Source of the DNA: Aureococcus anophagefferens
Taxonomy: Eukaryota; Sar; Pelagophyceae; Pelagomonadales; Pelagomonadaceae
Assembly (NCBI RefSeq): GCF_000186865.1
Contig: NW_008705583.1
Coordinates: forward strand, 609,293 to 666,575
Direction of reading: 5' to 3'
Length of the DNA stretch: 57,283 nt
The translations under genes were made by a program, and so were the position numbers. The notes under the pieces are model-generated. The model was not told where the DNA came from, ran no database searches, and worked only from the letters and a program-made list of their open reading frames with translations. The stretch's first letter is position 1. Every line of letters starts with the position of its first letter. Of the stretch, positions 2,388 to 53,224 are shown in pieces.

Positions 2388-3934
2388 ATGATCGTGCGCG
2401 TCCGCTGCTCGCAGGGCACGTGGCGCATCGAGATTCCGGGACCGTCGTCGCGGATCGGCGAGCTCAAGGCGGCCATCGAGGCGCAAAAGTCCGTGGCGTC
2501 GGACGCGCAGGTGCTGAGCGCGGAGCCGTCCGGCGCCGCGCCGCTCGACGACGGCGCGACGCTCGAGGCCTGCGGCCTGGGCGCCAACGGGTCCATGGTC
2601 TTCCTCGCCGTGGCCGCGGACCGGCGGGACGACGTCGCGCTGCCGCCGCCGCCGACGGCCAAGGACGACGTCGGCGTCCGCGGCGCCGCGCGCGTCAAGA
2701 TCGGCGCGGACGGGTCCATCGTCGCGACGGAGTACGACGACTACACGTCGGCCAAGGGCTTCCGGCCGGGCATGGCGGCGCTCGGCGACATCAAGAAGTC
2801 GTGGACGCTCACGGACTTCCTCGAGATGGACGACCAGTTCGTCTTCAAGGTGAAGCGCCAGGAGGACAAGCACTGCGCCGCCGTGTCCCTGGACGCCGGC
2901 GCGTGCGTGAGCTTCCAGGGCTACGTGCAGCAGCTCGGCTGGCGCCAGCAGCGCGTGGGCTTCCTCTACGGCACCTTCGACGACGGCGAGGCGCGCGCGG
3001 AAGCCGTCTACGAGCCGCCGCAGGACTGCAGCGAGCACGGCTTCGTGCTCCTCGAGGACGACAAGGCCGAGGCCGTGGCCCAGCTCGCGCAGCTGCTGGG
3101 CCTCGTGCGCGTGGGCTGGATCTTCGCGTGCCCGCCGCGCGAGGACGGCTTCGTCTTTTCCGGCGAGGAGGCGATCCAGGCGGCCATGGAGCAGCTCGAG
3201 GCCGCCGACGGCGTCGCCGAGACGCCCTACGTGTCCGTGCGCGTCACGGTCAACGAGAAGGGCGAGGCGAACTTCGAGGCCTACCAGGTGAGCCAGCAGT
3301 GCATGGCCATGGTCGCCGAGGGCGCGCTCCAGGGCGGGACGAGAGCGCGACGTTCCCAACTTCAAAGGCTCCTCTCTCGGCCGTGTTTCACTCGTTTCGG
3401 CTGATTTTTGGACGGGCGATCATCCCCCGGAGCGCTCTCGAAGCGTGGATGCTTTTTCTGGAACGCGCGCGCGCGGAACACCCACGTTGGAGCGACGTCG
3501 CATCACGCTCGTCCCGCCCAGGCGCGCTCGCGCCGGACCCGGACGACGCGGCCGCGTGCCTCGTCCACGAGACCTTCACGGCCATCGTCGAGGGCAAGCG
3601 CGCGGCGAACGTGAACACGAACTTCTTCCTCTGCAACGTGCCCGTGAAGCAGCACACGTCCGCGACGTTCGCCGCGACGTTCCCCAAGGAGAACCGCATG
3701 ATCCCGCAGACGCGCGACGACCTCAAGGTCGTCCTCAACAAGGCCAAGTCCACGGGCGCGAAATTGGGCGACGCCCTCGCGGACTTCGGCGCGCTCCTCT
3801 TCCTCATGGGCTTCCCCCAGATCTTCGACAGCCAGTTCATGCCCGCGGTCTGCGCGTCCGTCGTCGACCGGACGCTGCCCCTCGACGAGGGCTACGGCCT
3901 CATCCTCTACTCCTTCGCGGGCATGGACTTCTAG
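2388..3934 (+). CDS. NPL4: NPL4, Cdc48/p97 cofactor in ubiquitin-dependent protein extraction; interrupted by an introner
   Basis: Exons are 2388-3321 and 3522-3934, giving 448 aa. The start at 2388 (MIVRVRCSQGTWRIEIP) matches the usual NPL4 N-terminus, a ubiquitin-like fold; the open frame extending up to 2127 is not needed. An NPL4-type central region and an MPN-like core follow (VGFLYGTFDDGEARAEAVYEPPQ, then LLEDDKAEAVAQLAQLLGLVRVGWIF). After the intron come the C-terminal NPL4 segments (NFFLCNVPVKQH, FPKENR, GFPQIFDSQFM). In other eukaryotes NPL4 with UFD1 recruits ubiquitylated substrates to Cdc48/p97 for ER-associated degradation and chromatin extraction. The intron is a 200-bp introner whose removal joins ...AMVAEG to ALAPDPDDAAACLVHE. 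The gene is convergent with the coiled-coil gene, with 13 bp between stops. Confidence 0.93.
3322..3521 (+). mobile_element. Introner copy 1 (intron of NPL4), sense orientation, GC-AG
   Basis: The 200-bp intron consists of an 8-bp TSD GCGCGCTC (3322-3329) plus a 192-bp element (3330-3521). The second TSD copy, 3522-3529, begins exon 2. The TIR arms are CAGGGCGGGACGAG and, at the other end, CTCGTCCCGCCCAG: 13 of 14 positions pair, with the only mismatch at position 2. Splicing uses GC from the left TSD as donor and CAG at the element end as acceptor, restoring GAG GGC GCG CTC GCG. The core carries the signature GGCTGATTTTTGGAC, shared with the other three copies. Confidence 0.9.
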
Positions 3935-3947
3935 GACCCGCTAAGAG

Positions 3948-8650: not shown

Positions 8651-8652
8651 CC

Positions 8653-15773: not shown

Positions 15774-18010
15774 TTAGGAACTCGCCGTCTTCGGCGGCGC
15801 GTTCTGGGGCCCCATGCAGAGGAAGCCGAAGCAGGGCTGCTGGGGCGCCGTTTTCGGCGCGCCCGGCGCGGCGCCGGGGCACCGCGGGGGATCGGCGAGC
15901 TGGCGGCTCGAGTCTTCGGAGTCGCAGGCCGCCGTCGAGCCGCAGGTGGGGTCGACGTCGCCCCGGTCCGGCGCGCCGCCCCAGAGGAAGCGCGCGACGG
16001 CGACGTCGCCGAGCGCCGCGCGCTCGAGCGCGAGGACGTCGACGCTCCCGTCGCCGCAGGACGCGAGCATGTCGGCCTTGTCGAGGAGCGTCGGCGTCGC
16101 CGCCGAGCCCCGCGCGTGCGCCGACGGCCGCGGCGACGCGAGCGACGAGCCGCCGGACGCGGACGCCTCGCGGCTCGGCGCGGACGACGACGCGGAGTCG
16201 AGCGGTTCGTCCGACGGGTCGTCGCCGTCGGTCGGCGGGCCCGACTCGACCTGCGCGGCGTCGTCGAGCAGCCGCGCGGCCTCGCGGGCCTCGTCGCCGC
16301 TCAGCGCGCCGTCGCCGTCGTCGTCGAGCGCGTCGAGGCACAGCCGGAGCCGCTTCCGCGGCGACGCGTCCCCGAAGAGCAGGAACGCCGCGGCGCCGAG
16401 CGTCTTCCGCGACACGCCCGCCACGCCGCCCACGGCCGCCGCGGCCTCGAAGGCGCGCCGCAGCGCCCAGAAGACGACGGGGTCCGACGACGCCTCCAAC
16501 GCGCGCTTCACGTCCGGCCACCGCAGGGGCGCCTCCGGTGATCCGGCGCCGGCGACGTCGACGGCGCGCCGGATCGCGGGCCAGAGGCGCCCGCCCGCGG
16601 GGCCCTGGCAAAAGTCGTCGCTCGCGAAGTCGCGCGCCGTCGCCGCGGCGGGCGCGCCCCGGTCGACCGCGGACGCGACCTCGCGCCGCGCCGCGTCGAG
16701 CGCGCGGTCGTCGAGGGGCCGCCGCGGCGACCCGAGGCCCCGCAGCTCCGCCGTGAGCGCCTCCGCGTCCAAATCCACGACGAAGTCGCTCAGGACCGAG
16801 TACGCGACGGCGCCGTTCGCCCGGACGTCGTCCGCGGCGACGGAGCGCTTCTGGCGCGCGGCCCTGACGGCGCTGCGGCACGTGTGGCGCGCCGCGCCGC
16901 AGGCCGCGACGCAGGCCCGCAGGATCGCGGACGCGCACGGCTCGTAGTCGCCGTCGTCGGCCGCCGCGCGACGCGCGGCCGACGCGTCGAGGTCGCCGCA
17001 GGACGCCGAGTTGGGGAGCGTCGCCGGCGGCGCCGGCGGCAGGGCGCCGTGGCTCGCGACGCGCCGCCGCGGGGGCGCCCCCGCGGCGTCGCCGGCCGCC
17101 GCGCGCGCGCGCCGCGTCGCGCCGCAGGCCTCGAAGCAGTCGTCCCAGATGACGATCAACGCCGTCAGCGGCACGGCGTCGGCGAAGGCGCGGCAGGCCA
17201 GGCGCGGCGTCAGCGTCTCCAGCGCCAGCGCCAGCGCCTCGGGGCCCACGGCGTCCGCGAGCCGCGGGTACGCCGCCGCGGCGCCTGGGCAGCAAAAGGG
17301 TGCGAAATTCCCAACTTCAAAGGCTCCTATCTCGGTCGTTTTCCGCTCGTTTCGGCTGATTTTTGGACGAGCGATCATCTCTCGGAGCGCTCTCGAAGCG
17401 TGGGTGCTGTTTCCGAAACGCGCGCGCGCGGAACACTCACGTTGAAGCGACGTTGAATCACCCTTTTGCTGCCCTGCGCGGCGCCGTCGGCGACGGCGCG
17501 GCCGCACGCGTGGAGCCCGCCGCCGCCGAAGCAGCCCAGCGGCATCAACGCCCGCTCCAGCAGGCCGCGCAACAGGTGCGCGGCCTGGGCCTCGCGCGCG
17601 AAGAGGAGCAGCACCGCCGCGACGGCCGCGACGTCCCGCAGCTCCTCGTCGGGCTCGCCGCGCGCGCGGTCGCCCCGGCCCTCCACGGCAAACGCGCCGA
17701 CGACGCGCCGCATGCTGCCCTGGAGCTCCTCGGCGTCGCGCTGGGCGACGAGCTCGACGATGGAGCCCTGCCGCAGCTCCGCGACCGCGCGGCGGCACGC
17801 GGCGGCGATCGCGACGCGCGACACCGCGCCGAGCACCGCCGGGCAATGCGCGGGGCTCGAGGCCTCGCCGCAGGACGCGGCCCAGCGCGCGCCGATGCGG
17901 TACCGCGCCTCGGCGCCGCTCAGCTCGCTCTGGGACGACACGCGCGGCGACGGCTCGCGGGCGTCGCCGCCCCGCCGCGGACCGATGACGGCGTCGAGGA
18001 AGCGCCGCAT
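15774..18010 (-). CDS. TBC (RabGAP)-like protein with EF-hand, 678 aa; interrupted by an introner
   Basis: Exon 1 runs 18010-17485 and exon 2 runs 17284-15774; the 200-bp introner is removed with exact frame restoration (...VADG/AAAAYPRLADAVG). The stretch around the junction (LLERALMPLGCFGG...AYPRLADAVGPEALALALETL...FADAVPLTALIVIWDDCFE) matches the second half of a TBC domain, where the 'WD' position follows a hydrophobic helix. A canonical EF-hand loop is visible downstream (LDALDDDGDGALSGDEAREA). TBC plus EF-hand occurs in the TBC1D8/9 group. The N-terminal half, including the arginine finger, is not clearly identifiable, so catalytic GAP activity is uncertain. The tail is Ser/Ala-rich and disordered. 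The start at 18010 (MRRFLDAVIG) is the first good ATG. Expected role: regulation of Rab-dependent membrane traffic. Confidence 0.68.
17285..17484 (-). mobile_element. Introner copy 2 (intron of TBC-like gene), core antisense to the gene, GC-AG
   Basis: On the minus strand the intron begins in TSD GCGCCGCG (17484-17477) and the second TSD copy is 17284-17277. The 192-bp element (17285-17476) has TIR arms C[A/T]GGGCAGCAAAAGGGTG, 17 of 18 paired. Its conserved core (CCAACTTCAAAGGCTCC...GGCTGATTTTTGGAC) runs on the plus strand, opposite to the host gene, yet GC...CCCAG on the minus strand restores the reading frame. This is the clearest antisense introner here. Confidence 0.9.
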
Positions 18011-19941: not shown

Positions 19942-21243
19942 ATGCCGTCCGACTACTCCGGCGACGAGGAGAGCAACTACGAGCCGAGCCCGACGCCCGG
20001 GGACCGGGACAACCGCAAGGAGAAGACGCTCACGAACATGCCCTACGACGAGGCCCTCGAGCTGTCCCAGGTGAGCTGCCCCCGGGGGCGCGCGCGCGGC
20101 GCGGCCCCAGGAAACGACAACCCCCGCGCGTAGGATTCGACGGCTTCCTCGCTGGCCGAGGCCAAGGGCGGCGGCGGCGCGCCGTCCGTGGGCGCCAAGG
20201 GCTTCGGCGACGACGGCAAGTCCGGGCTCGGCGGCGGCGGCGAGGAGCGGCTCACGAACAACCCGTTCGACGAGGCCTGCGACCTCGACGACGAGGACGA
20301 CAGCGTCGACACGACGGAGGGCCTCCAGCAGAAGATGTTCGCCGCGCCGAAGAAGGAGGCGCCGCGGCCCGGCGCGGGCGCCAAGGCCGAGCCCGCGAAG
20401 GCGTCGGCCGCGCCGGCCGCGCGGCCGCCCGCGCCCGCGCGCGCGCCCGCGGCGACGACGACGGCGTCCGGGCGCATGACGGGGGGCGACGGCGGCTCCG
20501 ACAGCGACGAGAGCGAGGAGTCCGGCAAGGGCGGCGGCGGCGGCGCCGCGTCCGCCGCGCCCGCCGTCGAGGGCGCGTACAACGCCAAGGACTACAGCGA
20601 CCTCAACGTGTCCGCGGACGTGCGCGACCTCTTCCAGTACATCGGCCGCTACAACGCCCACGAGGTCGAATTGGATTCGACGCTCAAGTGCTTCATCCCC
20701 GACTACATCCCCGCGGTGGGGGAGATGGACGCGTTCATCAAGGTGCCGCGGCCCGACGGCGAGCGCGACGAATTGGGGCTCCAGGTCTTGGACGAGCCCG
20801 CGGCGGCCCAGTCCGACGCTACCGTCCTCGAGCTCCAGCTCCGCGCCGTGTCGAAGAAGCAGCACGGCGACGTCGCCATCCGCTCCATCGAGCACGCCGC
20901 GAAGAACCCGCTCGAGATCGAGCGCTGGATCAAGTCCATCGAGGATTTGCACCGCTCCAAGCCGCCGCCCCAGGTCAACTACCGCAAGGCCATGCCCGAC
21001 ATCGACAAGCTCATGGAGGAGTGGCCCTCCGAGTTCGAGGACATGCTCCGCGGCGTCGCGCTCCCGACCGCGGACCTCGAGTGCTCGCTGCCCGAGCTCG
21101 CGCGCATCGCGTGCTCCATCATGGACATCCCCGTCTACGACAACCTCGTCGAGTCGCTCCACGTCCTCTTCTCCGTCTACCTCGAGTTCAGCGACAACGT
21201 CCACTTCGCGGCCGCGCGGACCGCGCCGCCGCAGGGCGCGTGA
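19942..21243 (+). CDS. IFT46: IFT46, intraflagellar transport complex B subunit, 412 aa
   Basis: Exon 1 runs 19942-20070 and exon 2 runs 20134-21243, with a 63-bp GT-AG intron (20071-20133). The N-terminal 200 residues are acidic and low-complexity, but contain the paired motif T-N-M/N-P-Y/F-D-E-A (TNMPYDEALELSQ and TNNPFDEACDLDD). The conserved IFT46 domain begins at about residue 215: NVSADVRDLFQYIGRY, then CFIPDYIPAVGEMDAFIKV, PRPDGERDELGLQVLDEP, and NPLEIERWIKSIEDLHRSK. IFT46 stabilises IFT-B and carries outer-arm dynein into cilia. The match is strong across the whole domain. It implies that this organism keeps ciliary assembly genes. Confidence 0.95.
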
Positions 21244-22336: not shown

Positions 22337-22469
22337 CGCGTCGCGCCTCGTCGTCTCGACAAAGTGTGGCAGCTCGCCAAAACGCAGACGCTGTCCCGCG
22401 CACTACTTAGCTTTATGCATATCCCGCCGGCGGGAGATGTTCTACCCGTCCATGCTTTTACGGGTTCTN

Positions 22470-22518
22470 NNNNNNNNNNNNNNNNNNNNNNNNNNNNNNN
22501 NNNNNNNNNNNNNNNNNN
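22470..22518. other. Assembly gap (49 N)
   Basis: A run of undetermined bases sits exactly between the two copies of the duplicated block. The true missing length is unknown. It should contain at least the rest of ankyrin gene copy B. Confidence 0.99.
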
Positions 22519-22806: not shown

Positions 22807-25800
22807 TCAGACCCCCCCGACGAAGTGGAGGGTCGCGTTGCGCAGGTACGCGTCGGCGGCCGACGGCGCCGCGTCGAGGCGCACGTCGGCGACGTGGTCG
22901 CCGCCGGCCCGGAGCGGCGCGAGCGCCGACGCGGGCCCCGGCGCCTGCTTGGGGCGCCAGGCGACGGCGAGCGCGGCCGGCGCGCCCGCGGCCGCGGCCG
23001 CGTCCAACGACCCGTCGACGAGCGCCGCACCGCGGGCGTCGACCGAGAGCTCGAGGCCGCCGGCCGCCGCGGCGAGCTCGAGGTCGTCGACGGGCGCGCC
23101 CAGCTCCGCCGCGGCGGCGAGCTTGGCGGTCTGGAGCGCGTCGCGGAGCCGCCGGGCCGCGCCGGCGTCGCGCGAGACCGAGACCGCGGCGCCGGCGCCG
23201 CCGAGGCCCCGGAGCGCGGCCAGACCGCCGAGGAAGCGCTGGAGCGCGTCGTGTGCGCGGCGCACGTCCGCCGCCGGCGCGAGGCCGAGCCAGTCGCAGG
23301 GCGTCGCGCGCGGCAGCGCGGCGATCCACGCGCGCCACGAGTCGCGGTCGAGCGCCGCGCCGTCGGGCAGCGGCGGGCACGCGCCGCCGGGCGTCGGCCC
23401 CCGCTGCGTCGCGGAGAAGGCCTCGAGGCTCACGACGCGCTCGCCGACGGCCCGCAGCGCGCGCGCGTCGGAGTCGCGCTCCGCGCGCGCGCCGTACGTC
23501 GCGTAAAACGCGCCGCCGGCGAGCGCGGGCCACGGCAGGTCCTCCGGCGCCGCGTGGTCGCCGGCGTTCAGGCCGTCGACGGCCGCGTCCGCCGCCTCCA
23601 ACGCGCACTTCGCGTCGACGTCGCCCCACTCGTAGGGCTTCGTGAACGCGTCGGAGTAGCGCGCGCGCTCCGTGACGACGGCGTGCGCGACCGCCAAGAG
23701 AGCGTGCACGCGGCGCCGCTCGACGGGCCCGCGGTCCCAGGCGGCGCCGCCCTTCTCCGCGTCGCGCTGCGTCAGCAGGGCCTCGTGGCGCAGGAGCGCG
23801 GCCCGCAGGCCCACGTCCGCGCCGAGCGCGACGACGGCCGCGCGCGCGACGAGCCTTCCGGGCAGCCGCGACGGCTCGCCGACCGCGACCTCGGCCGTGA
23901 GGACGACGCGAAACCCCGGCGCGGGCCGCAGGCCCCGCAGGGCCTTCTCGAGCCCGAGGAGCCAGGCTTCGGACGCGAGGTGCGCGTTGCGGAAGACGAC
24001 CCAACAACCCGCGTCCGCGCCGCGGCGGAGCAGGTCGCGCGACCGCCGCTCGCTCGCCGCCGCGCCCATCGCGACGGCCTCCACGACGACGCCCAGGGAC
24101 CGCGCGGCGGCCTCGACCTCCTCGGCGGCGTCGCGGCCGCCGTTGCGCTCCGCGACGACCAAAGCGACGGGCGCGGCGAGCGCGTCGCCGTCGGCCTCGA
24201 CGGCGAGCGCGTCGAGCGCCTGCTGCCGGTCGCCGTCGGCGACCTCGAGGTCGTCCTCCTTGCCCAGGGACCCGGCGCTCCGGCGCCGCTTCCGCTCCTG
24301 CTTGCGCCGCTCCTTGGCGTCGCAGAAGGCGCCGAGGCGCGCCGCGTCGTCCGCCGCGGAGCCCGCGATCGACTCGACGCCGCCGCCCCCCGCGCCGCCG
24401 CGCCACGCGTCCGCGGCGTCGGACCCGAGGACGTTTTCGACGAGCGCGTCCGCCGCGTCGAGGACGCGGTCCGGCCGGAAGGCCTTGCAGGCGAGGAGCG
24501 CCAGCGCGGGCGACGCGGCTTCGCGGACCGCGGCGTCGCCGCCCGCGACCGCCGCCGCGCCGAGCGCCGCCGCGTCCGCGCCTTTGAGCTCCGGCAGCTC
24601 GAGCAACGCCGCGATGGCGTCGACGTCGCCGGCGCCGACGGCGCTCCGCACCTGCGCCGCCCGGAGCGACGTGTCGCCGGGCGCCGGCGGGGCCGCGAGG
24701 AACGCGACGGCCCGCTCCGAGAGCGCGGGGTCGCCCGCGCGATCCGCGTAGAGCGCGGCCAGCGCGAGGCTCGCGGCGACCTTGTGCTCCCGCGAGAGGA
24801 GCGCGCGGCCGACGCGCCGCGACACCTGCGCCACCAAAGGCGCCGCGAGGCGCGCGAAGCGCGCGGCGGGCGCCTCGGCGCCCGGCGGCGGCGGCGCCGT
24901 CGCCGCGAGCGCCGCGTGCAGCGCCCCGTCGAGGAACTCGTCGAGGCTCACGGCGTAGGCGTCGTGGAGCTCCACGAGGCGCGCCAGCACGCCGTAGACG
25001 TCCGCGGCGAAGGCCGCCGCGGCCTCGAAGTCGTCGGACGCGGCCCTCAGCTTCTCGATCGACGCCTCGATGTCGCGCGCCGCGGCCCTGGCCTCCAAAG
25101 CTTCCGCCTTGGCGGCCTCGAGGGCCCGCAACGCGACGTCATCATCCAGAAGCGACGCCTCGCCCTCGCTCGACGACGTGATGCGCTCGAGCACGTCCGT
25201 CTCGAGCGCGAGGAGCCGCGCGCGCTGCGCGTCCAAATCCTTGGCCGCGTCGACGCGGTCGCGCTCGAGCGCGGGCCGCTCCGCGCGGAGGAAGCGGCTC
25301 AGCGCCGTCGCCTGGAGCGACTCCGCCGTCGCGCTGAAGTCCAGGAGCGCGACGCGGCCCAGCAACCCCAGCGGCAGCTCGTCCGCGGCCGCGCGGCTCC
25401 GCGCGTGGAGCACGAGCGTAAAGTCCGGCGACACCTCGACGAAGTCGCCGCCGAGCTTCACGCCCGCCTTGCCGCCGCCGCGCTTCGCGAACTCGCGGTT
25501 CAACAGCGGGTGCGCCGCGGCGTCCCAGGCCTCGTCGACGTCGCGGACGACGAGCGCCGTGCCGAAGCGCGCGGCCGTCGCGAGCGTCTTCTCGAAGGAC
25601 GCGTCCGCCGCGGAGACGACGGCGACGCGCGCCGCCGCGTGGAGCGACTCGACGAAGCGCAGCGCGCCGCCCGACGGGTCCACGAGCAGCGCGCAGCGCT
25701 TCGAGCCCAGCAGCATGGCCGCGTTCGCGACGAAGCGCGCGTCCCTCGGTAAGCCGTGCGTCTCGTGCCAGTCGCGCGCCGTCGCGCGGCTCACGGCGCC

Positions 25801-31800: not shown

Positions 31801-34800
31801 CGAGGTCGCCGGCCGCGACGGCCGCGTCCATGGCCGCGGCCCAGGAGATCTGCGTCGCGAGGACCGCGGCCTGCGTCGGCGTCGCCGCGAGCCAGCCGTC
31901 GACGTCGTCGCCGTCGACGCCCGCGAGCGCGGTCCGCGTCGCCGCCGCGACGGCGACGCGCATGGCCCGCTCGACCTTGACGAGCCACTTGATGGCGTCG
32001 CGGTCCTCGAGGGCGACGCCCAGGGGCACGACCTCGCCGTCGAAGGACGCCATGCGCGCGCCGCCGTCCGCCGCGTCGACGGCCGACACCGCGGCGAACA
32101 TCTTCGACAGGTGCGGGCCGACGCGCGCGGCCGAGTCGTCGCCGCCGCCGAGGATCGAGAGCAGGTCGTCGTCGCCCACGAAGTAGAAGCGCGCGAAGGC
32201 GCCGCGCTGCATCTCGAGGTAGTCGCCGAGCGCGCGCTGCGCGTCGCCGAGCGCGGCCGCGACGTGCTCCAGCGTACCGGGCAGCTTCTCCGACTCGAGG
32301 AGCGCGCGCACGGCCGCGGGCGCCTTCGCCAGCAGGTCGCGGCGGCAGCGCGCGAACGCGCGGTCCGCGTCGGCGAATTTCGCCGCGGCCGCGGGCAGGC
32401 GCTCCGCGACGGCGGCGCCGCCGTTGCCGCCGCCGAAGATCGCGCCGAGGCCGACCCATCGGCGCTGGGCGTCAGCCCAGAGCTCGAGGCGCCGCCGCAG
32501 CTCGTCGCCCTCCTCGGCCAAGCCCTGGCGCCGCTTGCAGAGCGGCGACCGCGCCTCGAGGTGCGGCCGGAACGCGGGCGAGTCTTTCATCGCGCACAAC
32601 GCGGTGCCGTGCTCGTCGAGCTTCTCGAAGAGGGGCTCCCAGCCCCGGATGAGCGGGCCCGGCGCGACGTCGAAGGTCGCGCCGGCCCAGTGCGCGTCGA
32701 CCTCGTCGAGGAACTGGGACAGCGCCGCGTCGTTCCGCGCCGACGCGAGCACGGCTTCCACTTCTTTCCGCGCGGCGTCGCCGAGCTCGAGGCGCAGGAG
32801 CGCGCCGACGCGGAGCGTCCGCAGCTCCGGCGCGCGGCCGCCGAAGAGGGGCCCCGCGAGCTTCGCCCAGTGGCGGTCCCCGAGGTTCGCCGCGTTCCGG
32901 AGCTCGCCGACCCAGCCGCCGACGGCGCGCTCGCGCGCCTCGACGACGCGGACGGCGTCGGCGTGCGCCGCGTACTGGCGCACCTTCGCCGGCGCCGTGC
33001 GCAGCGCCTCGTCGGCCTGGCGGAGCGCGCCGCGCGCGGCCTTGGCGTCGAAGTCGGCCCACCGCGCGTCGTCCAGCGCGGCGCACGCGGCCACGGGCGC
33101 CTCGAGCGCGCGCCAGACGTCGCCCAGGGCCACGGCCTCGCGCCGGATGGCCTCGAGGTCGCCCGCGGCCGACGGCGGGGCCCCGCCGGCGTCGCCGAGC
33201 GCCGCGAGCGCGACGGCGAAGTCGCGGCCGTCCCTCAGAGCCTTGTCGACCTGCTCGAGGACGCCGCCGAGGCGCTCCAGCGCCTCGGAGGGCGACGCCG
33301 CGGCCGTCTTCTCGCCGCCGCCGGCGAGGTCCAGGCGCTCGGGCTTCGTCTCCGCCCAGAACGTCGCGAGGCGCTCCGCGACGTGCGCGGCCTTGGCGAT
33401 CTCCGCGTCCGCCTCGGCCCGGAGCGCGAGCTTCTCGCCGTCGAGGCGGCCCTTCTTGCGCTCGAGGATCTGCGCCGTCGCGTCGACGGCGCCGGCGACG
33501 AGCGACGCCTCGAGCCAGCGCGACGCCGCGCCGCCGCGGTAGTCCAAATCGACCTCGGCGTCGTCCTCGAGCGACCGCGCGAGCGCGTCGAGGTCCACGC
33601 GCTGCGCCTTGAGCGTCGCCTCGACGGCGCCGACGGCCGCGCAGGTCGCGCGCCAAGCCGGCACCTGTTTTACCAGTTCCTCGTAGAGCGCCAGGGCCTG
33701 CAGCGCGTCGCGGCACGAGCACCGGCGCTCGTCGAGCGCGTCCAAACGCTCGCGCGCGGCCGTCGCGGCGTCGAAGACGGCCCTGGCGGCGTCCCAGGCG
33801 CGCTTGCCCGCCTCGCGCCGCAGCTCGCGGAGCCAGCCCTCGAAGCGGGACCGCAGGGACGCGTGCGCCGCGCGCGCGTCGAAGACGACGGCGCACGACG
33901 CGTCGCCGTCGGCGGCAAAGTCGGCCCAGAGGTCGTCGTCGCGGCGCCGCCGCACCTTGGCCGGGATGGCGAGGGACGCCGCCTCGGCCTGGCCCCGGCG
34001 CTCCTCCTCGAAGGCGAAGTCCGCGTCCGCGTCGTGCCGCGCGGCGACCGCGTCCTCGAGGAGGCCGCGCCACGCGTCCAGCAGCGCGCCGGCGTCGCCG
34101 GGCGCCGGCGCCGGGTAGGCGTCGTCGACGGCCCGGGCGACCTCGCTCACCGTGGAGGCCCAGAGCAGGTCGTGGCGCCGCCAGCGCGCGAAGCGGTCGC
34201 GCGCGTCGTCCGCGCGGCGGCCCGCGGCCTCGAGCGCGGCCGCGTAGGCGCCGTGGAGCGTCTCCAGGGACCCGTCGCCCGTGTCCTCGTCGAAGAGGGC
34301 GTCGCCGTAGGCCTCGGCGTCGTCCAGGGGCTCCTGGCTGTCGCCGCGCTTCTTCTTCCGCGCCGTGAGCGCGCCGGCCGCGGCGAACCCCGCGGCGTCG
34401 TCGCCCGCGCCCGTCAGCGCGTCGAAGCGGCTCGCGCGGAGCCGCGGGAGCCGCGCACAGGCGCCGACGACGTCGCGGAGCTGGCCGTGGAAGCCCGCGC
34501 GCGCGGCGTCGACGCCGGGCTCGAGGCGGAGCCGGCCGTCGCGCGCGGCGATCTTGTGGAGCGACCGGCGGCAGCCCACGTCGACGTCGGCCTCGCTCCG
34601 GTCCCCGGCGGCGTCGACGACCACGGGGCGGCCGTCGAGCGCCAGCGCCCAGCGCTTGAGCCGGTCGACGCAGCGCGCGCGGAGCGCGCGGAGCGCGCGC
34701 CGGTCCATCGCGCGCGTCCAGTCCTCGAGGTCGTGGAACCCTTCCAAACTCAGGCGGTCGACGACGGCCTGGAGCTCCTCCTGCGCGCCGTCGAGCGCGT

Positions 34801-37381
34801 GGACGTCGTCGAAGCCGTCGGACGTTTCCAGCGTCGCGATGGCGGCGTCGCAGCGCCGCCGCGCGTCGCGGAGCACGTCGAACTTCTCCTGGAGCGCGCT
34901 CACGTCCTCGGCGAAGGCGTCGACCCAGGCGCGCACGTTCGCCGTCGGGCTGCTCCAGGCGAGCTTGGGGAACCGCGGCGCGTCCGCGGTGCCCCGCGGG
35001 AAGACGCGCGCGACGCGGTCCCGGATCGCGCGGAGCCAGGGCCCGAGGAGGCCGTCGTCCGCCGGGTCCACGAGGCGCCGCGCGACGCCGTAGCCGCGCA
35101 CGGCGGCCCGCAGCGCCGTCGCCGCCGGGTAGCGGTCCCGGGCCTCGTCGGCTAAAAGCGCGATCGTCTCGGGCACCTTGAAGCCGAGCCACCGGAGGTG
35201 CTTGACCTCCTTGAAGAGCTCGACGCGGTCCTCGTCGAAGTTCACCACCAAGGCCCTGGCGTCGCCGACGACGTCGACGTGGAGCAGGAGCTGGCCCCGG
35301 AGCTCGGACTCGGCGCGCGCGGACGCGGCCGTCGCGCGCTTCCACGTGCCGAGCCACTCCTCGAAGAGCGGCGTCGCGTCGAGGTGGCGCAACAGCTCGT
35401 CGGCGACCGTGCGCAGCGCGCGGCCCCGCGGGTGGCGCTCCATGGCCCGGTCGCCGCCGAGGACGTCGCTGAGCCGCGCCATCTGCGCGTGGAGCCGCCG
35501 CTCCATCTGCCGCGCCCAGAGGATCTTGCCGCCCAGCGGCGGCAGGTCCCGCAACGACGCGACGACGGCCGCGTTCGAGCCCTCGTAGCGCTTCGTGCAC
35601 GCGTCCTTGAGGCCGTCGACGTCGCGCTTGACCGTGTCGACGAGCTCCGCCTGGTGCCGCTGCGCCGCGCGGCGCACCGCGGGGCGGTCCAGGAGCGGCT
35701 GGAACGTCGCGAAGACGGCGAAGGTCTCGTCGGCCGTCGCCGCGGCCTCGAGCTCCGCCGCGAGCTGCGCCGCGGCCATGTTCTCCGCGCGGTCGAGGCG
35801 GCGGAAGTAGTCGTCGGACGCCGCGCGGTGCCGCGCGTCGCCGTCGAAGGTCGCGTCGCAGGCGCCGCCGGCGCCGCGCACCTCGCTCAGGAAGCGCTCG
35901 TAGGCGCCGTCGAGCTCGCCGAGCGCGGACGTCGCGGACCGGTCGTCGCCCGCGGCCTCGCGCTTCGCGAGGACGGTCGCGAGCACGCCGCGGAATTTGT
36001 GGTGGTCCGCCTTGAACTTGCGCAGCTCGCCGAGGCGCGCCTCGACCTTCTCGTGGAAGAGCTCCAAATTCGCGACGCGGCGCATGTCGCCCGCGGCGGC
36101 GGAGCCGCCGCCGCGGCGCATGAGCTCGAGCGCCAGCTCGCGGAACTTCCGCACGCCGCCGCGCGCGGCCGCGAAGCAGCGGTCCGCGGCCTCGGCGTCC
36201 TCGTCCGCCAAGAGCGCGCCGGCGCCGTCGTCGAGGAGGCGCATGGCGCTGCGGCCGACGGCGTCGGACGCGGCTTCCACGAGGCGCGCGCCGCGCGACG
36301 GCGCGTAGTGGCGGCTCGCGCGGAGCTTCGCCAAATGCTGGAAGAAGTCCGTCGCCGCCGCGGCCAAATCGTCGAGCGTCGCCGCGCCCTCGACGGGCGC
36401 GACCGGCAAATCCCGGAGCACCTTGTTCGCGTCGACGGCGACCTCGAGCGATCGCGCGAGCGGCGCGGCCACGCCGTCCTCGAGCTGCGCGGCCGCGACG
36501 AAGCGCTTCGCGCGCTTCAGCACGTGGGCGACGGCCCGGCCGCCGGGGCTCCGCCGCGAGTCGCCGGCCGCGCGCAGCGCGGCCTCGTACTCGCGCCAGA
36601 GCGCCATCTCGCCGTGCACCGCGTCCGCGTCGCGGCCCGGCGGGAACGCGAGCGGGCTCGCGTCCTCGTCGCGGCCCTCGCAGAGGCCCACGAGGTCGTG
36701 GGCGTCCTTGGCCCAGGCCGCGACGGCCGCCGCGCACTCGTCCGCGAGCGCGCCGTCGCCGTCGAGCGCACCGCCGACGTCGTCGCCCGAGCCGCCGCCC
36801 TCGAGGAACCGCTCGACGGCCGCGGGCGGCGCGAGCGTCGCCTCCGCGAGGCGCGCGCGCCGGTCGCAGCGGCCCAGGGCCGCCTCGAGGTCGCCCAGGC
36901 GCTGCGCCACGGCGACGAGCCGCGGCGCCATCGCCTCCTCGGCCTCGGTTCCGCCGGACGACGCCTCGGCGACGAGCGGCCGCACCGCGGCCCGCAGCAG
37001 CTGCCGCGCGACGGCGAGCGTCTCCGTCTGCCCGTGCGTGCCGCCGCGCCCGCTCAGCACGACGGCGCAGTGCTCGCCCAGGTCCGTGGAGTCGCCGTAC
37101 TCCTCGATGATCGAGCTCAGCGCGGCGCCCGACGCCGCGCTCCGACCCACGGCGACGAAGCGCTCCGGGAGCGGCGAGAAGTTCCGGGAAAAGGCGACGG
37201 CGCCGTCGTCGACGCCCATGAGCAGGCACGCGTCCGCCGTCGTCGCCGCGACGAAGGAGGCGATGGCGCTTTCGCTCGACGCGATGTCGTTGGTGATCGC
37301 AGCTTCTACAGACTCGCGAGACGCGCCGATGAGGGCCTGGCCAAGCGGCACCAAGAAGGTCTTGAGCGGTCCTTCTGCCAT
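22807..37381 (-). CDS. DYNC1H1: Cytoplasmic dynein-1 heavy chain, about 4730 aa
   Basis: Exons are 37381-28225 and 27852-22807, with one 1-nt frameshift near 28430. The tail (DHC_N1) and linker (DHC_N2) occupy roughly 37.4-31.5 kb. Six AAA modules follow: AAA1 P-loop GPAGTGKTESV near 31.3 kb with WGCFDEFNRL; AAA2 GGAGVGKST near 30.4 kb; AAA3 CGPPGSGKTMT near 29.3 kb; AAA4 GESGVGKS near 27.8 kb. The stalk and microtubule-binding region (LRSLRNPPPNVKRTLEAV) is near 26.6 kb, and the C-terminal domain ends at 22807. The AAA4 segment 'FLERMNALLASGEVPGLW' and 'ATSPALFNRCVVDWFG' are typical of dynein-1 rather than dynein-2 or axonemal chains. Role: minus-end-directed motor for organelle transport and mitosis. 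The start at 37381 (MAEGPLKTF) is preferred; the frame is open to 37453. Confidence 0.93.
27853..28224 (-). other. 372-bp GC-AG intron in the dynein gene
   Basis: Removing 27853-28224 joins ...HVLRIDA to VLRAESGHLLLVG, which matches the dynein consensus 'HVLRIDRVFRQPxGHLLLIG' residue for residue. The donor is GCGCGT and the acceptor ATCGCAG. The intron has no stop in the coding frame, so an unspliced reading would insert 124 Arg/Pro-rich residues just before the AAA4 P-loop. It has no TIRs or TSD and does not match the introners. Confidence 0.75.
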
Positions 37382-37588
37382 GGCGATTGGCGCGCTCGCC
37401 GGCTTGGCTACTCGCACATCGTGATTGACATTTTGAACCTCGTCGAGCACCATGCTCGCGGGCCCGTTGAGGCGGAATTTGGAAAATCGATCGACGCCCG
37501 CCTGCTGTAGTAGTGCCGCCTGGTCCCTACCCCTCCGAGGACTCCTCCGAGGCGTCCTCCTTCAAGCCCCCCTGCTTCGCCGCGCCTC
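37382..37588. other. Intergenic 207 bp between SLC4-like stop and dynein start
   Basis: The dynein start is on the minus strand and the SLC4-like gene ends here on the same strand, so this should hold the dynein promoter and 5'UTR. The segment 37400-37500 is AT-richer. No element was recognised. Confidence 0.4.
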
Positions 37589-40241
37589 TTAAATGTCCAT
37601 CTCCGTGTCCATCTGGAGGAGCTCCCGCGCGGCGAAGAAGCGCGGGATGAAGATGGCGCGGAGGGCGAGGAGCACGCCGATGACCGAGGGGAAGACCATG
37701 GCCGTGGCCTTGTTGAGCTTGAGGAGCCAGAGCGTCGCGAGGCACCCGGCCTGCACCGCGGTGAACTTGAGGACCTTGCCGCGGCCGAGCTCGACGATGG
37801 CGCGCTCGACCGTGTCCGTCGGGTCGAGGCGCTTCGTGTCCAACAACAACGCCTTGGACCGGCCGAGGAACTGGTTGCCCGACATGACCTTCTGGCCGAG
37901 GAAGAGGAAGACGCCCCAGACGACGGCCAGGGGCACCTGGCTGAGCAGCGGCGCCACGTTCAGCGACGCGAGCACGAGGCCGTGCACGAGGAAGCCGCTG
38001 AGCCGCGTCTCGACGACGGACGCGACGTCGCCCTCGGGCTTTTGCGGGGCCGCCGGCGCCGCGGCCGCGGCCGCCGTCGCGTTGGCCTTCTGGCGCATGG
38101 ACGCCACGGCCGCGCCGCCGCCGCCCGCCGCGACGGGCGCCGCGACGGGCGGCGCGCGCGTCGCGTTCGCCGCGCCGGCCGTCGCGTTCGGCGCCGCCGT
38201 TGCGAGCGCCTCGCCAACCTCGGCAGCAGCAAAGTCGCGCTTCGCCGCGGCGGCGACGGTCTCGGGGCAGGCCTTCTCCGGCGTCGGGAGCGGCGGCGGC
38301 GCGGGCTTGGGGGTTTTCGGCGGCGGCCGCGCGGCGGCCGACGGCGCCGTCGCGTTGCGCTTGAGCTGCGCCGCGCGGATGATCTCGTCCGGCGACGGCA
38401 GCGGCGGCTGCTTGCGGTCCAGGGGGCTCTGGCTCACGGCGACCGTGCGCTTCGCCTCGTCGGGCCGCGGCGCCGGCTTCGCCGGCGCCTCGGCGACCGT
38501 CTCCTCGGCCGCGGCGATGTTCGACATCGCGCGGACGTGGTTGAGGCTCTGGACCGTCGCGGAGCACATCCAGGGCAGGCCCAGGAGCGACGACCCGAGC
38601 GTGATCGTCGCCAGGGCCAGCAGGTCGAGGTGGTAGGCCGAATCCTTGGCGAGCTTGTTCTGGGGCGAGTTCACGGTCCGCACGGTGATGTTCTGGTCGA
38701 GGAAGAAGAGCGTCGCGAGGAACAGCGCCGGTATCGCGGCCAATAAGCGGTACCGCACGGCGAGGGACCCCAGATCCACCAGGCTGAACATCTTCGCCCG
38801 CGGCGCCCCCAGCTCCAGCCGCGCCAGCGAGCCCAGCCCCGTCATCGCGTCCGTCCGCAGGAGCGCCGACATCGCGACGATGACGAACGCGGGCCCGAAG
38901 TCCGCGATCAAGGTCCGGAACTTGGCCGTGAAGAAGCGCGTCCGCGGCGCGCCCGCCAGGGACGTGCAGGCGACGGACGTCGCTAACGCGCTGTTCATGG
39001 CCAGCAGCGCGTCGCCGGGCCGCGCGGCGCCGACGCCCACGGACCGGAGGAGCCGCACGATCGGCGACGCGCCCTCCGAGAGGAAGTTGAAGGCCAGCAA
39101 CGCGTTGAAGACGTCCTCCGTGAAGCGCGTGCAGTACTTGATCAAACCCGACGCGTTGAAGGACGCGAGGACCGCGAGGTAGCAGCTCGTCCAGACGCCG
39201 CACCACGCGTACCTGTGTGGAAATCAACCACTGGTTTAAGGGGTCCTGACCAAACTTCAGAACGCTCTAGCTCGGTCAAATCGATGTCGATTCGGCTGAT
39301 TTTTGGACGAATCGATGGCTCTCGTCAAGTTCTCGAAGCGGGGCAGAAGAGCTCGCGTCGAATCGGCCGCATACGCTCACATTGAAGTCGGGATGAAGAT
39401 TTGATTTCCGCACAGACGCGTACATGGGCAGGAACGGCACGCCCGCCTTGACGGTCCACGACGACAGCGCGCCGATGAAGGCCAGGGTCAGGCCCGTCGG
39501 CGCGACGAAGGTCATGGGCTGGCCCGCGAGCGTCGCGTAGGCCATGCCGCTGAGGCCGCAGGACAGGATGACGTCGCGCGGCCCTAGCACGCCGGACGTC
39601 GCCGCGGTCATCGCGCCGCCGAACGCGATCGCGGGCGCGAGCACGGCGAAGTAGAGGAAGGCCGACGCGCCCAGCGTCTTCCCCGGGCTCCGGAAGCCGT
39701 CGGCCCAGTCCGTCGCGTACATGGGGAGCCGCCGCTTCGCGTCCTCCCTCAAGCCCCGGAGCCACGTCTTCCGGCTGAACGGCGCGATGCTCCCGGGGTT
39801 CGCGCTCGCCTCGCCGACGGGCCAGGACGTCTGGGCCATGGCGCCGCCGGCGAAGCGGCTCCCCGTGCGCCGCCGCGTCGACGCGCCCGTCCACCCGACG
39901 GGCAGCACGACGCCGTTGTCGAAGAGCTGGCGCCCGAGGCCGTCGTTGCCCACGAAGACCTCGGGCACGCTCACGTTGCCCTGCACGTTCGACGTGATCA
40001 TCTGCGTCTCCGTCTCGCCGACGGCCGCCGCCGACGGCACGACGACGGACCGCCGCCGCGGCTGCTCGTCGTCGTTGCAGTTGCTCGAGCGGCGGAGCAC
40101 CGACGCGGCGCGCGGTTTCTGCGCGTCGCGCGGCTGGGCATGGCGCGTCGGCGTCACGAAGTACGCTTGCGGGTACGCGGCGCACGCCGCTAACGTAAGG
40201 ACGCGGAGCATGCTCACGGTCATGTCACGCTCTGCACACAT
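37589..40241 (-). CDS. SLC4/Bor1-family anion (bicarbonate or borate) transporter with N-terminal signal, 813 aa; interrupted by an introner
   Basis: Exon 1 runs 40241-39424 and exon 2 runs 39212-37589. Splicing out the 211-bp introner gives ...FLPMYAWCGVWTSCYLAVLA, the expected SLC4 membrane segment. Other landmarks are FGGAMTAATSGVLG and GLSGMAYATLAGQPMTFVAP (first half), LDQNITVRTVNSPQNKLAKD and LGLPWMCSATVQSLNHV (second half), and VPLAVVWGVFLFLGQKVMSG with NQFLGRS near the end. A roughly 170-residue Ala/Pro-rich loop is inserted after NHVRAMSN. The N-terminus has a hydrophobic leader ending AYPQAYFVTP, like a stramenopile signal/plastid presequence; ATGs at 40223 and 40211 are alternatives to 40241. 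In a phototroph a bicarbonate role in carbon concentration is plausible, but borate export cannot be excluded. Confidence 0.88.
39213..39423 (-). mobile_element. Introner copy 4 (intron of SLC4-like gene), different TIR family, core antisense, GT-AG
   Basis: The 8-bp TSD is GTACGCGT at 39423-39416 and again at 39212-39205. TIR arms CTGTGCGGAAATCAA and (reverse complement of the other end) CTGTGTGGAAATCAA pair at 14 of 15 positions. The 203-bp element shares with copies 1-3 the core GGCTGATTTTTGGACGA, TCTCGAAGC and CCAAACTTCA-like blocks, but its TIR is unrelated. The core reads on the plus strand while the host is on the minus strand. The TSD GT and element CAG are the splice sites. Confidence 0.88.
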
Positions 40242-48467: not shown

Positions 48468-48495
48468 GAAGATGAGGGTGTTGCGCGCCGGGGTC

Positions 48496-49699: not shown

Positions 49700-49855
49700 G
49701 CTCTCTCTGGACGGGCAGCCCCAAATCAGAAGAGGATGCGCTCGGCCATGGCTCTCCAAGGCATCCAGCAACGAGCTCGCAGAAGCAGCATGAGGAGATG
49801 TTGAGAAGGGCAAAAACGGATTTATAAACGGCACCTTCTAGACGCTGCCCCCAGC
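49700..49855. promoter_or_regulatory. Divergent promoter, PH/EF-hand gene and rhomboid gene
   Basis: A 156-bp interval between start codons on opposite strands. AT-richer segment with GGATTTATAAACGGC near 49817-49835; the TTTATAA could be a TATA-like box for the rhomboid gene about 30 bp upstream of its ATG. Inference. Confidence 0.45.
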
Positions 49856-50677
49856 ATGCACGACGACGCGTCGGCGGATGGGGACGAGCGGTCCATCTTC
49901 CTGGGCCTCGTCGCGGAGCACGACGAGCGGTCCGAGGACGGCGACGACGTCGTCCACCCGGAGCCGTCCCACGAGCACCACCAGGACATCTCCCTCTTCC
50001 GGCGCCTGCTCCAGGCCGAGGACGACAGCGTGCGCGGCCGCTCCCCGTCGCCGGAGCGGCCGCCGCGCTACGAGACCTACGCGCGGGGCGCCGACGTCGA
50101 GGCCGGCGACGCGCCGCCGCCGCCGCCCGCGGCGCGGCCGCGGCGCGCGTCGACGGTCACGTTTTCGCCCGAGATGACGAGCAGCCCCGCGCCGCCGCGG
50201 CCGCCGCCCCTCGACATCCTGAAGACGCCGACGGCCGCGCGGCCGCGGCCCCGGTCGAGCACGGCGTCGTCGCTGCGGTCGTCCATCGGCAGCGACTTCG
50301 ACCACCTCGACGCCGCGGCGCTCGCGGCGCTCAGCCCCTTCAGCGACCTCACGTCGCCGGAGACGATCAAGCACGAGATGCACGTCGCCATCCACAAGCT
50401 CAAGCGGAAGCTCGAGGCGGGCCTCGAGCTGCGCCAGGTCATGCGCGACCCGACGAGCGCGACGGGCCGCGCGGTCGTGCCCGTCAAGGTCTTCCGCGAG
50501 CCCGGCGGCTTCTGGTGGCACCAGCCCGCGGAGCAGCGCCGGTTGCTGAAGCGCATGAGCACGCTGCGCAAGCGGTCGACGAGCGGCGACGCGCGCGGCC
50601 GCTTCTCGCGCGGGTCGTCGCTCGGCGCCGCGTTCGCGTCGTTCCGCAAGGGCTCGTCGAGCTCGGACTCGGACTCG

Positions 50678-50708
<31 letters not shown>

Positions 50709-51717
50709 GCACGGCGACGAGCGCGTCGTCCCTCGAGTACCCCGGGGGCATCGACTCGAGCATCTACGCGGGGGACCGCGCGCACGTCCGGTGGAGTAGC
50801 GTCGCGACGCTCTGGCCGGCGCTCTCAAAGGAGAAGCTCGAGGGCCTCGACGAGCGACACGCGAAGCACACCTTCTCCATGCACCTCGACGACGGCACGG
50901 AGCTCGACTTCACCGTGCCGTCGAAGCTCGTCCACCGCGCTTTGGTCGTTGGCTTCGAGTGCGCGCTGCAGCACCTCCGCGTGTCGCGCGAGCGGCGACG
51001 CGCCGCGAGCGGCGGCGACGAGCCCGACGAGCCCCCGAGCCCCCTGAGCCCGCGCGCTCCGTCGCGAACCCCCTCGACGACCTCTTCTTCGAGGCGCGGA
51101 AGCGCGCGAGCTCGAGCGTCGACGGCGCGAACGCGCGCGCCTTCGGCGCGCCGCCCGACGACGACGACCTGGACGAGCTCCTGGACAAGGAGGAGGACGC
51201 GTCGGGCAAGGTCCACGCGGCGCGCCAGCTCACGTGGACGGAGCGCCTGGGCCTCCACCACCTCCACGCGCTCTACCGCGACGACCACCACCCGAGCCGC
51301 CACGGGAAGATCGAGAAGGGCGCCAAGGTCCACATCTCCCACGAGGAGTTCCTCGACGACGACCACCCGTACCACATCGAGTTCCCCGTGCCCCTCAAGC
51401 CCGGCGAGCGCAAGCGGCGCTACGTGCGCCTCCAGATGCCCTGCCCCCTCTTCCGCGCGGGCATGTACCTCTCGGGCGAGGTGCTCAAGAGCCACAAGTC
51501 CAAGGCCGACGACGTCGTCCGCTACACCGTGAAGTACACGGGCGGCCCCTTCTACCACGTCGACGACCGCGACGTCGCCCTGTCGACGGCGTCGCGGCGC
51601 CTGAGCCGGAGCCTGCACCGCGCCGCGGCGGGCGCCAAGGGCGCCGCGCGCCGCGCGTCGGGCGTGCTCCACCTGATGGACCACGGGGGCGCGGAGCGCA
51701 AGGAGGAGGCGCCGCGG

Positions 51718-51780
<63 letters not shown>

Positions 51781-53224
51781 GCCGCCGTCTTCAAGCGCCC
51801 GCCGGACATGCCCGAGGGCACGCGCATCGTCGGCGTGCAGCGCGAGTTCATGGACGTCGACATCGCGTTCCAGGCCAACAGCCTCTTCCCCTACTTCACG
51901 CTGCTGCTCCTGGCCTTCTACTGGGCCAAGTTCTTAGGCGACCACATCAACAACAACCTGGAGATCCACGAGCGCCACGGGTCGCTGCGCCACGCGCTCG
52001 AGGCCGTGTCCGACTTCGGCCACGGCTGCGAGCTGCAGGCGATGGAATACTCGCGGCTCTTCACGTACCAGGCCGTGCACCTCGGCGTGGAGCACATCTT
52101 CACGAACAGCGCCGTCTTCCTCATTTTAGGGTCCGTGCCAGGGCAGGAAAAGAGAGCGAAATTCCCAACTTCAAAGGCTCCGATCTCGGCTGTTTTCCAC
52201 TCGTTTTGGCTGATTTTTGGACGAGCGATCATCTCTCGGAACGGTCTCGAAGCATGGATGCTTTTTTGGAACGCGCGCGCGCGGAACACTCATTTTGAAG
52301 AGAACTTGAATCACCCTTTTCCTGCCCAGGTCCGTGCTCGAGATGGTCCACGGGCCCTTCATCGTGGTCATGTTCTGGGCGGGCGTCGTCGTCGGCGCGA
52401 TGGTCGCGCAGATCTTCGACACCTACAGCCGCGTCGTCGGCTTCAGCGCGGGCGTCTATTGTATCCTGGGCATCCACTTCGGGAATCTGGTCATGAACTT
52501 CCACGAGATGCGGGACGGCATCCTGAACCGGTGGACGCGGCTCGCGATCTTCGGCGGCTTCTTCTCCATCGACATATTCTTGTCCATGAGCTCGAACGTG
52601 TCCGTGACGATCCACTTCGCGGGGTTCCTCATCGGGTCCCTCATGAGCTGCGTCTTCATCCACGAGCTCGTGTCGCACCGCCACGTGAAGGTCATCAAGT
52701 GGCTCGCGCGCGGCGGCCTCGCGCTCGGCTTCTCCATGACCGTCTTCCGCTACCACTTCTTCATCGTCGAGGCGGACCCGCCGCGGCCCCTGACCTACCT
52801 CGCCCGGGCCCAGACCAAGGACTGCTGCTACCTGCTCCGCCGGTGCCACATCGACGCGGACTTCTACCCGGCGTTCCAGTGCGAGGACCGCGATACGGAC
52901 TACACGTCCCTCTTCCGGGGCACGGGCACCGTGCTCAAGCGCCGCATCGAGATCCTCTGGGGCATCAACGCGACGCTCGCCGCGCGCGACGACGGCGGCG
53001 CGTTCTCCGACTGCGAGTACATCGAGGACTGGCTCCAGCAGGTCTGGCTCTTCTTCATCGACAGGCGCGACACCTACGAGCAGGTCGACTCGCCCTGCGA
53101 CGTCACCTTCAAGGACGCGGTCTGGGGGGAGGCGGAGTGGACCTGCGACGACGCCGTCGCCCGCGGCTGGACCTGCGACTGGCTCGCCGACGCGGGCTAC
53201 GACTGCGCGGGCTGTACGTGCTAA
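49856..53224 (+). CDS. Rhomboid-family intramembrane serine protease with long acidic N-terminus, about 1056 aa; interrupted by an introner
   Basis: Exon 1 runs 49856-52130 and exon 2 runs 52330-53224, with one base apparently missing in a C-run near 51045. The N-terminal 600 residues are charged and low-complexity, with Ser/Asp clusters and an uninterrupted 20-Asp tract. The rhomboid core starts near 51880: one TM (LFPYFTLLLLAFYW), a second with HIFTNSAVFLILGSVLE (conserved His and Asn), then GFSAGVYCILG with the G-x-S catalytic serine, and VTIHFAGFLIGSLMS with the catalytic histidine. The C-terminal tail is Cys/Asp-rich (DWLADAGYDCAGCTC). Active-site residues are all present, so it should be proteolytic. 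The substrate is unknown. The introner sits inside the second TM coding region. Confidence 0.85.
51718..51777 (+). repeat. (GAC)20 microsatellite encoding poly-Asp
   Basis: Twenty uninterrupted GAC codons within the rhomboid gene. Pure trinucleotide repeats like this are length-variable and prone to collapse in assembly. Confidence 0.95.
52131..52329 (+). mobile_element. Introner copy 3 (intron of rhomboid gene), sense orientation, GT-AG
   Basis: The 8-bp TSD GTCCGTGC is at 52131-52138 and 52330-52337. The 191-bp element (52139-52329) has arms C[A/T]GGGCAGGAAAAG. GT of the left TSD and CAG of the element end are the splice sites, restoring TTA GGG TCC GTG CTC. The core is closely similar to copies 1 and 2, including GGCTGATTTTTGGACGAGCG and GGAACGCGCGCGCGCGGAAC. 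The 3' arm reads CCCTTTTCCTGCCCAG, a polypyrimidine tract plus acceptor. Confidence 0.92.

What the first reader, a model, noticed from the sequence alone, without database searches (positions are those of the whole stretch)
3322..52329. Four introner introns in one 57-kb window, all with exact 8-bp TSDs
At 3322-3521, 17285-17484, 39213-39423 and 52131-52329, host genes are split by 199-211-bp introns built as TSD + TIR element. TSDs are GCGCGCTC, GCGCCGCG, GTACGCGT and GTCCGTGC, each perfect. All interrupt conserved genes (NPL4, TBC-like, SLC4-like, rhomboid), and removal restores the expected protein. Introners with TIRs and 8-bp TSDs are known from Aureococcus (Huff, Zilberman and Roy 2016, as I recall). 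This density suggests recent, genome-wide intron gain.
Basis: partly seen in the sequence, partly recalled or inferred. Interest (0 to 1): 0.9.

Follow-up and report, generated by a model that had tools for sequence, protein, structure and literature searches.

The report
Jumping DNA predicted to become introns
In a genome that matches the brown-tide alga Aureococcus anophagefferens, four copies of a small kind of transposon lie inside genes, each framed by an exact 8-base duplication and each predicted to be spliced out of the messenger RNA as an intron; this kind of system is already known, but its end bases follow a direction rule that we did not find described.

Summary
Confirmed: at 3322-3521, 17285-17484, 39213-39423 and 52131-52329 sit TIR elements of 191-203 bp with exact 8-bp TSDs, and removing TSD plus element restores the protein frame at all four. 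The genome matches Aureococcus anophagefferens, in which such introners were published, so the system is already known. The 17-base core occurs 2,110 times. Of the first 100 copies on contig 1, 85 gave a TSD/TIR call; 84 of these pair a GT/GC donor in the TSD with an AG acceptor in the TIR. In the 79 with a fixed direction, flanks score as sense coding in 79 and the frame resumes in 78. New to me is a polarity rule in family A: base 2 of the TIR arms rarely matches its partner, and the sense 5' tip is never CTG (0 of 51), whichever way the body points. Raw genome-wide end counts are 616 and 273 for the two mirror forms, against at most 6 and 0 (after reading) for the symmetric forms. Window copy 2 differs from a mirror copy at exactly bases 2 and 191 of 192. 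No transposase was found. Splicing was not tested.

The parts
3322..3521 (+). Introner intron 1 (family A, GC-AG, 200 nt) in an NPL4 gene: TSD copy 3322-3329 + element 3330-3521; second TSD copy 3522-3529 (GCGCGCTC)
17285..17484 (-). Introner intron 2 (family A, GC-AG, 200 nt) in an unnamed conserved gene: element 17285-17476; sense-side TSD copy 17477-17484, other copy 17277-17284 (GCGCCGCG in sense). Mirror polarity: CTG...CTG on the core strand
39213..39423 (-). Introner intron 3 (family B, GT-AG, 211 nt) in an SLC4-type bicarbonate transporter gene: element 39213-39415; TSD copies 39416-39423 and 39205-39212 (GTACGCGT in sense)
52131..52329 (+). Introner intron 4 (family A, GT-AG, 199 nt) in a rhomboid-family gene: TSD 52131-52138 + element 52139-52329; second TSD copy 52330-52337 (GTCCGTGC)
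2112..3321 (+). NPL4 coding sequence upstream of intron 1 (open frame; the true start was not determined)
3522..3931 (+). NPL4 coding sequence downstream of intron 1, to the stop
17354..17370 (+). Conserved 17-base core GGCTGATTTTTGGACGA (also at 39294-39310 and 52208-52224; one mismatch at 3399-3415)

Best explanation
The four segments are copies of a non-autonomous terminal-inverted-repeat transposon (an introner) that lie in coding exons of Aureococcus anophagefferens with 8-bp target-site duplications, and each is predicted to be spliced out with a GT or GC donor taken from the duplicated target and an AG acceptor supplied by the transposon's end. Shown: TSD, TIR, the GY...AG pair, the position inside reading frames and frame restoration. 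Inferred: cut-and-paste movement by a transposase in trans (not found) and splicing itself. In family A the TIR arms match each other except at base 2: the end on the acceptor side (mRNA sense) reads CTG from outside in (CAG on the sense strand), while the other end reads CAG or has decayed to CGG or CCG. The body lies in either direction, so the acceptor polarity belongs to the tips and not to the body. Polarity is mostly inherited but has switched several times on the best tree, most likely by exchange between the two matching TIR arms, which would turn the body round relative to its tips. Family B mostly carries CTG...CAG tips and can supply an acceptor in either direction. Copies without a spliceable tip on the sense side would be lost by selection.
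For: Core 2,110 copies, reversed control 0. Contig-1 set, all of the 100 places listed first: 85 TSD/TIR calls, TSD 8/8 in 75, 84 splice-competent. In the 79 copies whose direction the splice signals fix, sense coding beats antisense in 79 and the frame agrees across the junction in 78 (p 3e-36). Families reassigned by sequence: A = 52, ends CAG..CAG 25, CTG..CTG 16, CGG..CAG 7, CCG..CAG 1, CTG..CCG 1, CTG..CGG 2, no CTG..CAG and no CAG..CTG. GY donor on the strand picked by the A ends alone: 51 of 52, background 0.205, p 3e-34. Genome-wide A ends, exact core and tips: CAG..CAG 616, CTG..CTG 273, CTG..CAG 25 raw, CAG..CTG 3 raw. B CTGTG..CACAG 419. TIR arms of A match at position 9 in 87/106 (53.2 by shuffling) and 11 in 94/106 (60.5), base 2 in 4/106 (39.8). 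Window copy 2 and L124 differ only at bases 2 and 191. Tree of 49 A interiors: 8 polarity changes (bootstrap 7-8, shuffled 15), one clade rejected p-AU 0.026; nearest neighbours share polarity in 32.2 of 39 against 20. Proteins.
Against: No RNA evidence. No transposase: hAT, KDZ, MULE and IS1595 domains not found, though the hAT and KDZ searches rang in no control genome either. 15 of the 100 copies gave no TSD/TIR call. One of 52 family A copies (C1:859092) lacks a GY donor. One of 79 copies does not keep its frame. The tree has no starred branches, 29 of 46 inner branches are open, and starred branches force only one change. No mirror copy shows an exchange that reaches TIR positions 15-17 as a clean swap, so the switch could be a tip-only change.
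Confidence: 0.93

Rival explanations
1. Two old mirror lineages of family A (acceptor on the left or on the right end) arose once each, and bodies were later shuffled between them by gene conversion between dispersed copies; no exchange between arms is needed.
For: Polarity is heritable: nearest neighbours share it in 32.2 of 39. Several internal columns differ in frequency between the two sets. Starred branches force only one change.
Against: On the best tree 7-8 switches are needed and one clade for the mirror form is rejected (p-AU 0.026). A pair differing only at the two tip bases of 192 would need a conversion tract that stops just inside both tips.
Confidence: 0.3
2. The sense 5' tip avoids T because a perfect TIR stem would pair with the acceptor AG in the RNA and hide it; the mismatch keeps the splice site open.
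For: Predicted: the acceptor A is unpaired at 0.87 in 85 A copies with a CAG tip and 0.16 in the 4 with CTG. Decayed A tips in the contig-1 set are G or C, never T.
Against: Family B copies with CTG tips have the AG paired (unpaired 0.02, n=25) and yet lie in genes in frame in the same way. Three of the 4 CTG copies of A were fetched on purpose, one came from a similarity search.
Confidence: 0.25
3. The tip bases are rewritten at each insertion (for example during end processing) and selection keeps those with the acceptor on the sense side.
For: Copies identical except for both tip bases.
Against: Polarity clusters on the tree and among nearest neighbours (0 of 500 and 0 of 2000 shuffles as extreme), so it is mostly inherited.
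Confidence: 0.1
4. RNA-based spread by reverse splicing of introns, as proposed for fungal introners (PMC9860276, section 8 read).
For: All 79 contig-1 copies with a fixed direction score as sense in coding sequence.
Against: 8-bp TSDs that differ from site to site, matched TIR arms, and a donor dinucleotide that lies in the duplicated target and not in the element.
Confidence: 0.02

Closest known systems
Aureococcus anophagefferens introner elements (Huff, Zilberman and Roy 2016; recalled, the paper is not held)
   Same: Same species by protein identity. Direct repeats and TIRs of constant length with canonical splice motifs are stated for it in PMC7789003 (passages), a characteristic length of about 210 bp in PMC9481584 (passage), insertion in both orientations in PMC10228655 (passage).
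   Different: The tip-polarity rule and its switching are not mentioned in the passages that I saw; the original paper could not be checked.
Introners surveyed by Gozashti et al. 2022 (PMC9860276: abstract, part of section 4, section 8 and passages seen)
   Same: Acceptor carried by the element and donor taken from the TSD (their Fig. 2B type); enrichment in genes.
   Different: Their Aureococcus sp. example (Fig. 2F) carries both splice sites and adds 12 bp to the transcript; the four copies here add nothing to the restored proteins.
hAT-type MITEs (termini recalled)
   Same: 8-bp TSD, short TIR, a CAG tip at one end of family A.
   Different: The other tip of A and most tips of B read CTG; no hAT dimerisation domain found.

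Membership tests
A. anophagefferens introner elements | host species A. anophagefferens | tested here: met
   100% identity over 85% of the query to AURANDRAFT_30993, identical across the site-3 junction; genome of 49.05 Mb against 49.9 Mb for strain CCMP1851 (PMC11237714, part 1 of the text read)
A. anophagefferens introner elements | 8-bp TSD and TIR | tested here: met
   4/4 in the window; 85 of 100 contig-1 copies gave a TSD/TIR call, 75 of them with 8/8 match
A. anophagefferens introner elements | one splice site in the element, the other in the TSD | tested here: met
   84 of 85 called copies
A. anophagefferens introner elements | spliced out of mRNA | not testable with these tools
   No RNA reads; protein continuity only
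A. anophagefferens introner elements | insertion between nucleosomes | not tested
   No chromatin data
hAT superfamily | 8-bp TSD | tested here: met
hAT superfamily | related autonomous copy with a hAT transposase | tested here: inconclusive
   PF05699: 0 matches in own genome, but the search rang in none of the 14 control genomes
MULE or IS1595/Merlin-like transposons | transposase domain in the genome | tested here: not met
   PF10551 and PF12762: 0 matches, control genomes rang in 3 and 1 of 14; one model each, so a diverged transposase could be missed
KDZ transposons | transposase domain in the genome | tested here: inconclusive
   PF18758: 0 matches, no control rang

The most novel reading that the evidence does not exclude
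The introner has a switchable splice polarity: two terminal bases, one in each TIR, always point the acceptor along the direction of transcription, and they flip as a pair relative to an otherwise identical body. One transposon body therefore makes introns in genes of both strands through repeated exchange between its own TIR arms, a way for a transposon to become intron-making in both directions without ever having symmetric ends.
Probability: 0.4. Interest if true: 0.7.

Novelty: already known. Interest (0 to 1): 0.42.

Why it matters
Introners are a leading explanation for mass intron gain. A rule in which a single base pair per end decides whether a transposon copy can be an intron, and which flips against the body, makes the step from transposon to introner testable at one nucleotide. 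It would also explain how one family can load both strands of a gene-dense genome with predicted introns. Annotation is affected too: sites 1 and 2 of the window, and 48 of 84 donors in the contig-1 set, are GC-AG, and two deposited A. anophagefferens NPL4 models do not continue across this junction (P0012, P0016).

Tried and rejected
Transposase domains in the own genome: hAT, KDZ, MULE, IS1595, nothing found. Viral vector: the core occurs in 3 viral contigs, none with element sequence around it, so taken as chance. Hairpin exposure of the acceptor as a general rule: family B contradicts it. Rfam on the window: nothing at gathering thresholds. 18S rRNA search for the species name: three failed answers, given up; species taken from proteins instead. 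The first sampling script dropped copies with an identical 100-bp centre and accepted a few spurious calls; replaced. One search is the same analysis on 91 of the 100 places (79 credible calls, frame agreeing in 77) before the last nine were fetched. The tree mixes in 30 copies picked by similarity to site 4 and others fetched for their ends, so the polarity statistics are taken from one search, which uses contig-1 copies only (49 rows out of those 91 places; L068 and lengths outside 180-200 dropped). In some searches the copies with no single direction (6) were scored in their better direction; one search leaves them out. The family A set (106) is not a random sample and contains at least two misassigned B copies; one search corrects the contig-1 set only. 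The single 'CTG' tip counted for A is a B copy.

Of the 25 raw CTG..CAG matches, 17 begin in the flank or TSD of other copies. Of the 8 that begin at an element end, 2 proved to be CTG..CTG on reading (L132, L135), 4 were confirmed (L026, L133, L134, L136) and 2 gave no TSD call (L131, L137). Of the 3 raw CAG..CTG matches, each has its own GCCCAG end: C2:387381, C39, C17 (L148, TSD 6/8). The 616 and 273 were not read one by one.

Not done: RNA-seq, strain comparison, nucleosome mapping. The 2016 paper is not held. Searches for print on the polarity rule; none of the passages that I saw mentions it.

Full report
What is there. Four segments of the window carry the same anatomy: an 8-bp duplication, an element with inverted ends and a shared inner core, and the second copy of the duplication. 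Elements are 192, 192, 203 and 191 bp. In the sense of the host gene each intron would run from the first base of the upstream duplication to the last base of the element, starting GC (sites 1, 2) or GT (sites 3, 4) and ending AG. Because the duplication is exact, removing 'TSD + element' or 'element + TSD' leaves the same exon; the splice dinucleotides pick the first.

Removal restores proteins. Site 1: the joined frame aligns to NPL4-like protein 2 of PDB entry 9m3z from residue 5 to 333, across the junction at 200/201, and to a natural protein that is identical through the junction (P0001) as well as to uninterrupted homologues (P0002-P0004, and Chrysophaeum taylorii P0007). Two predictions from 'ena' contigs run into an element instead (P0008, P0010): their residues follow the window's own read-through of intron 1 with a few changes, so intron-bearing DNA or unspliced RNA of this locus with other letters has been sequenced elsewhere. 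Site 2: no Pfam match; P0121 is identical across the junction and the more distant P0122 has no gap there. Site 3: the HCO3 transporter domain spans the junction and A. anophagefferens AURANDRAFT_30993 is identical across it. Site 4: the rhomboid domain spans the junction; no homologue search was run for it. None of this is RNA evidence.

Where it is. The genome has 49,050,692 bases in 86 contigs. Protein identity places it in A. anophagefferens, a species of which strain CCMP1851 measures 49.9 Mb (PMC11237714, part 1 of the text read).

How common. The 17-base core occurs 2,110 times, 0 times in the reversed control. A set free of similarity choice is the 100 places listed first, all on contig 1; I read all 100 (with L004-L008). 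85 gave a TSD/TIR call: TSD 8/8 in 75, 7/8 in 9, 6/8 in 1; 15 gave none. 84 of the 85 have GY and AG on one strand. With a codon table trained on sites 1, 3 and 4, and leaving out the 6 copies whose direction the splice signals do not fix, the sense strand scored above the antisense in 79 of 79, and the frame upstream and downstream agreed in 78 of 79. About 74% of the window looks coding by the same table, so copies outside genes seem to be missing against chance, by loss or by targeting. Donors are 48 GC and 36 GT, and phase-1 GT donors are rare (1 of 35 with agreeing frames), as expected if donors are taken from codons.

Two families. Family A (192 bp, CAGGGC/CTGGGC ends) and B (203 bp, CTGTG ends) share the core and scattered blocks but are only about 49% alike. 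On contig 1 they number 52 and 33 of the 85.

The polarity rule. TIR arms of A match more than by chance: position 9 in 87 of 106 copies (53.2 by shuffling), position 11 in 94 (60.5). Base 2 does the opposite: 4 of 106 against 39.8; of those 4, three were fetched on purpose and one came from a similarity search. In the contig-1 set no A copy (0 of 52) has two acceptor-capable ends or none, and the sense 5' tip of the 51 with assigned sense is CAG 41, CGG 7, CCG 3, CTG 0. The strand picked by the ends alone has a GY donor in 51 of 52. Genome-wide, with exact core and tips: 616 and 273 for the mirror forms; at most 6 for CTG..CAG and 0 for CAG..CTG after reading the raw matches. The body lies in both directions (32 and 19 of 51). 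Window copy 2 (CTG..CTG) and L124 (CAG..CAG) differ at bases 2 and 191 and nowhere else in 192. On a tree of 49 contig-1 interiors without the TIRs, polarity changes 8 times (bootstrap 7-8, shuffled mean 15), a single mirror clade is rejected at p-AU 0.026, and nearest neighbours share polarity more than by chance; but no branch is starred, and starred branches force only one change. Polarity is thus inherited yet apparently labile. Exchange between the two matched arms would produce it in one step; two tip mutations would pass through a symmetric form that is almost absent. This is inference; no flip was seen in place.

A rival for the missing CTG is RNA folding: a perfect stem would pair the acceptor A. 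It fits A but not B, where the A is predicted paired and the copies still interrupt genes in frame.

What moves it. I found no transposase; for hAT and KDZ the tool's controls were silent, so absence is not shown. Three viral contigs hold the bare 17-mer and no element around it.

Standing. The introners are those of a published species and kind, so the finding as given is already known. The tip rule is the part worth a specialist's look; I could not check it against the 2016 paper, and my searches showed no mention of it in the passages seen.

Noticed in passing
22810-37561 (-) and 20134-21240 (+): Large frames of a dynein heavy chain and an IFT46 gene lie in the window. That A. anophagefferens is a coccoid cell without described flagella is recalled; if so these hint at a hidden flagellate stage. 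In one search (312 papers with at least two of three terms) none of the ten listed names Aureococcus.
   Followed up: partly
22469-22518: A run of 50 N, probably an assembly gap or withheld stretch, just beyond the dynein frame.
   Followed up: no
39294-39310 and 17354-17370: Families A and B have different TIRs but the same 17-base core and several shared blocks; why these inner blocks are so alike is unexplained.
   Followed up: no
3322-3521: Deposited A. anophagefferens NPL4 models (P0012, P0016) do not continue across this intron, perhaps because its donor is GC.
   Followed up: partly
3322-3521 (homologues P0008, P0010): Proteins predicted on 'ena' contigs read into an introner at the same NPL4 position with a few different letters, so this insertion may vary in sequence between strains.
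   Followed up: partly
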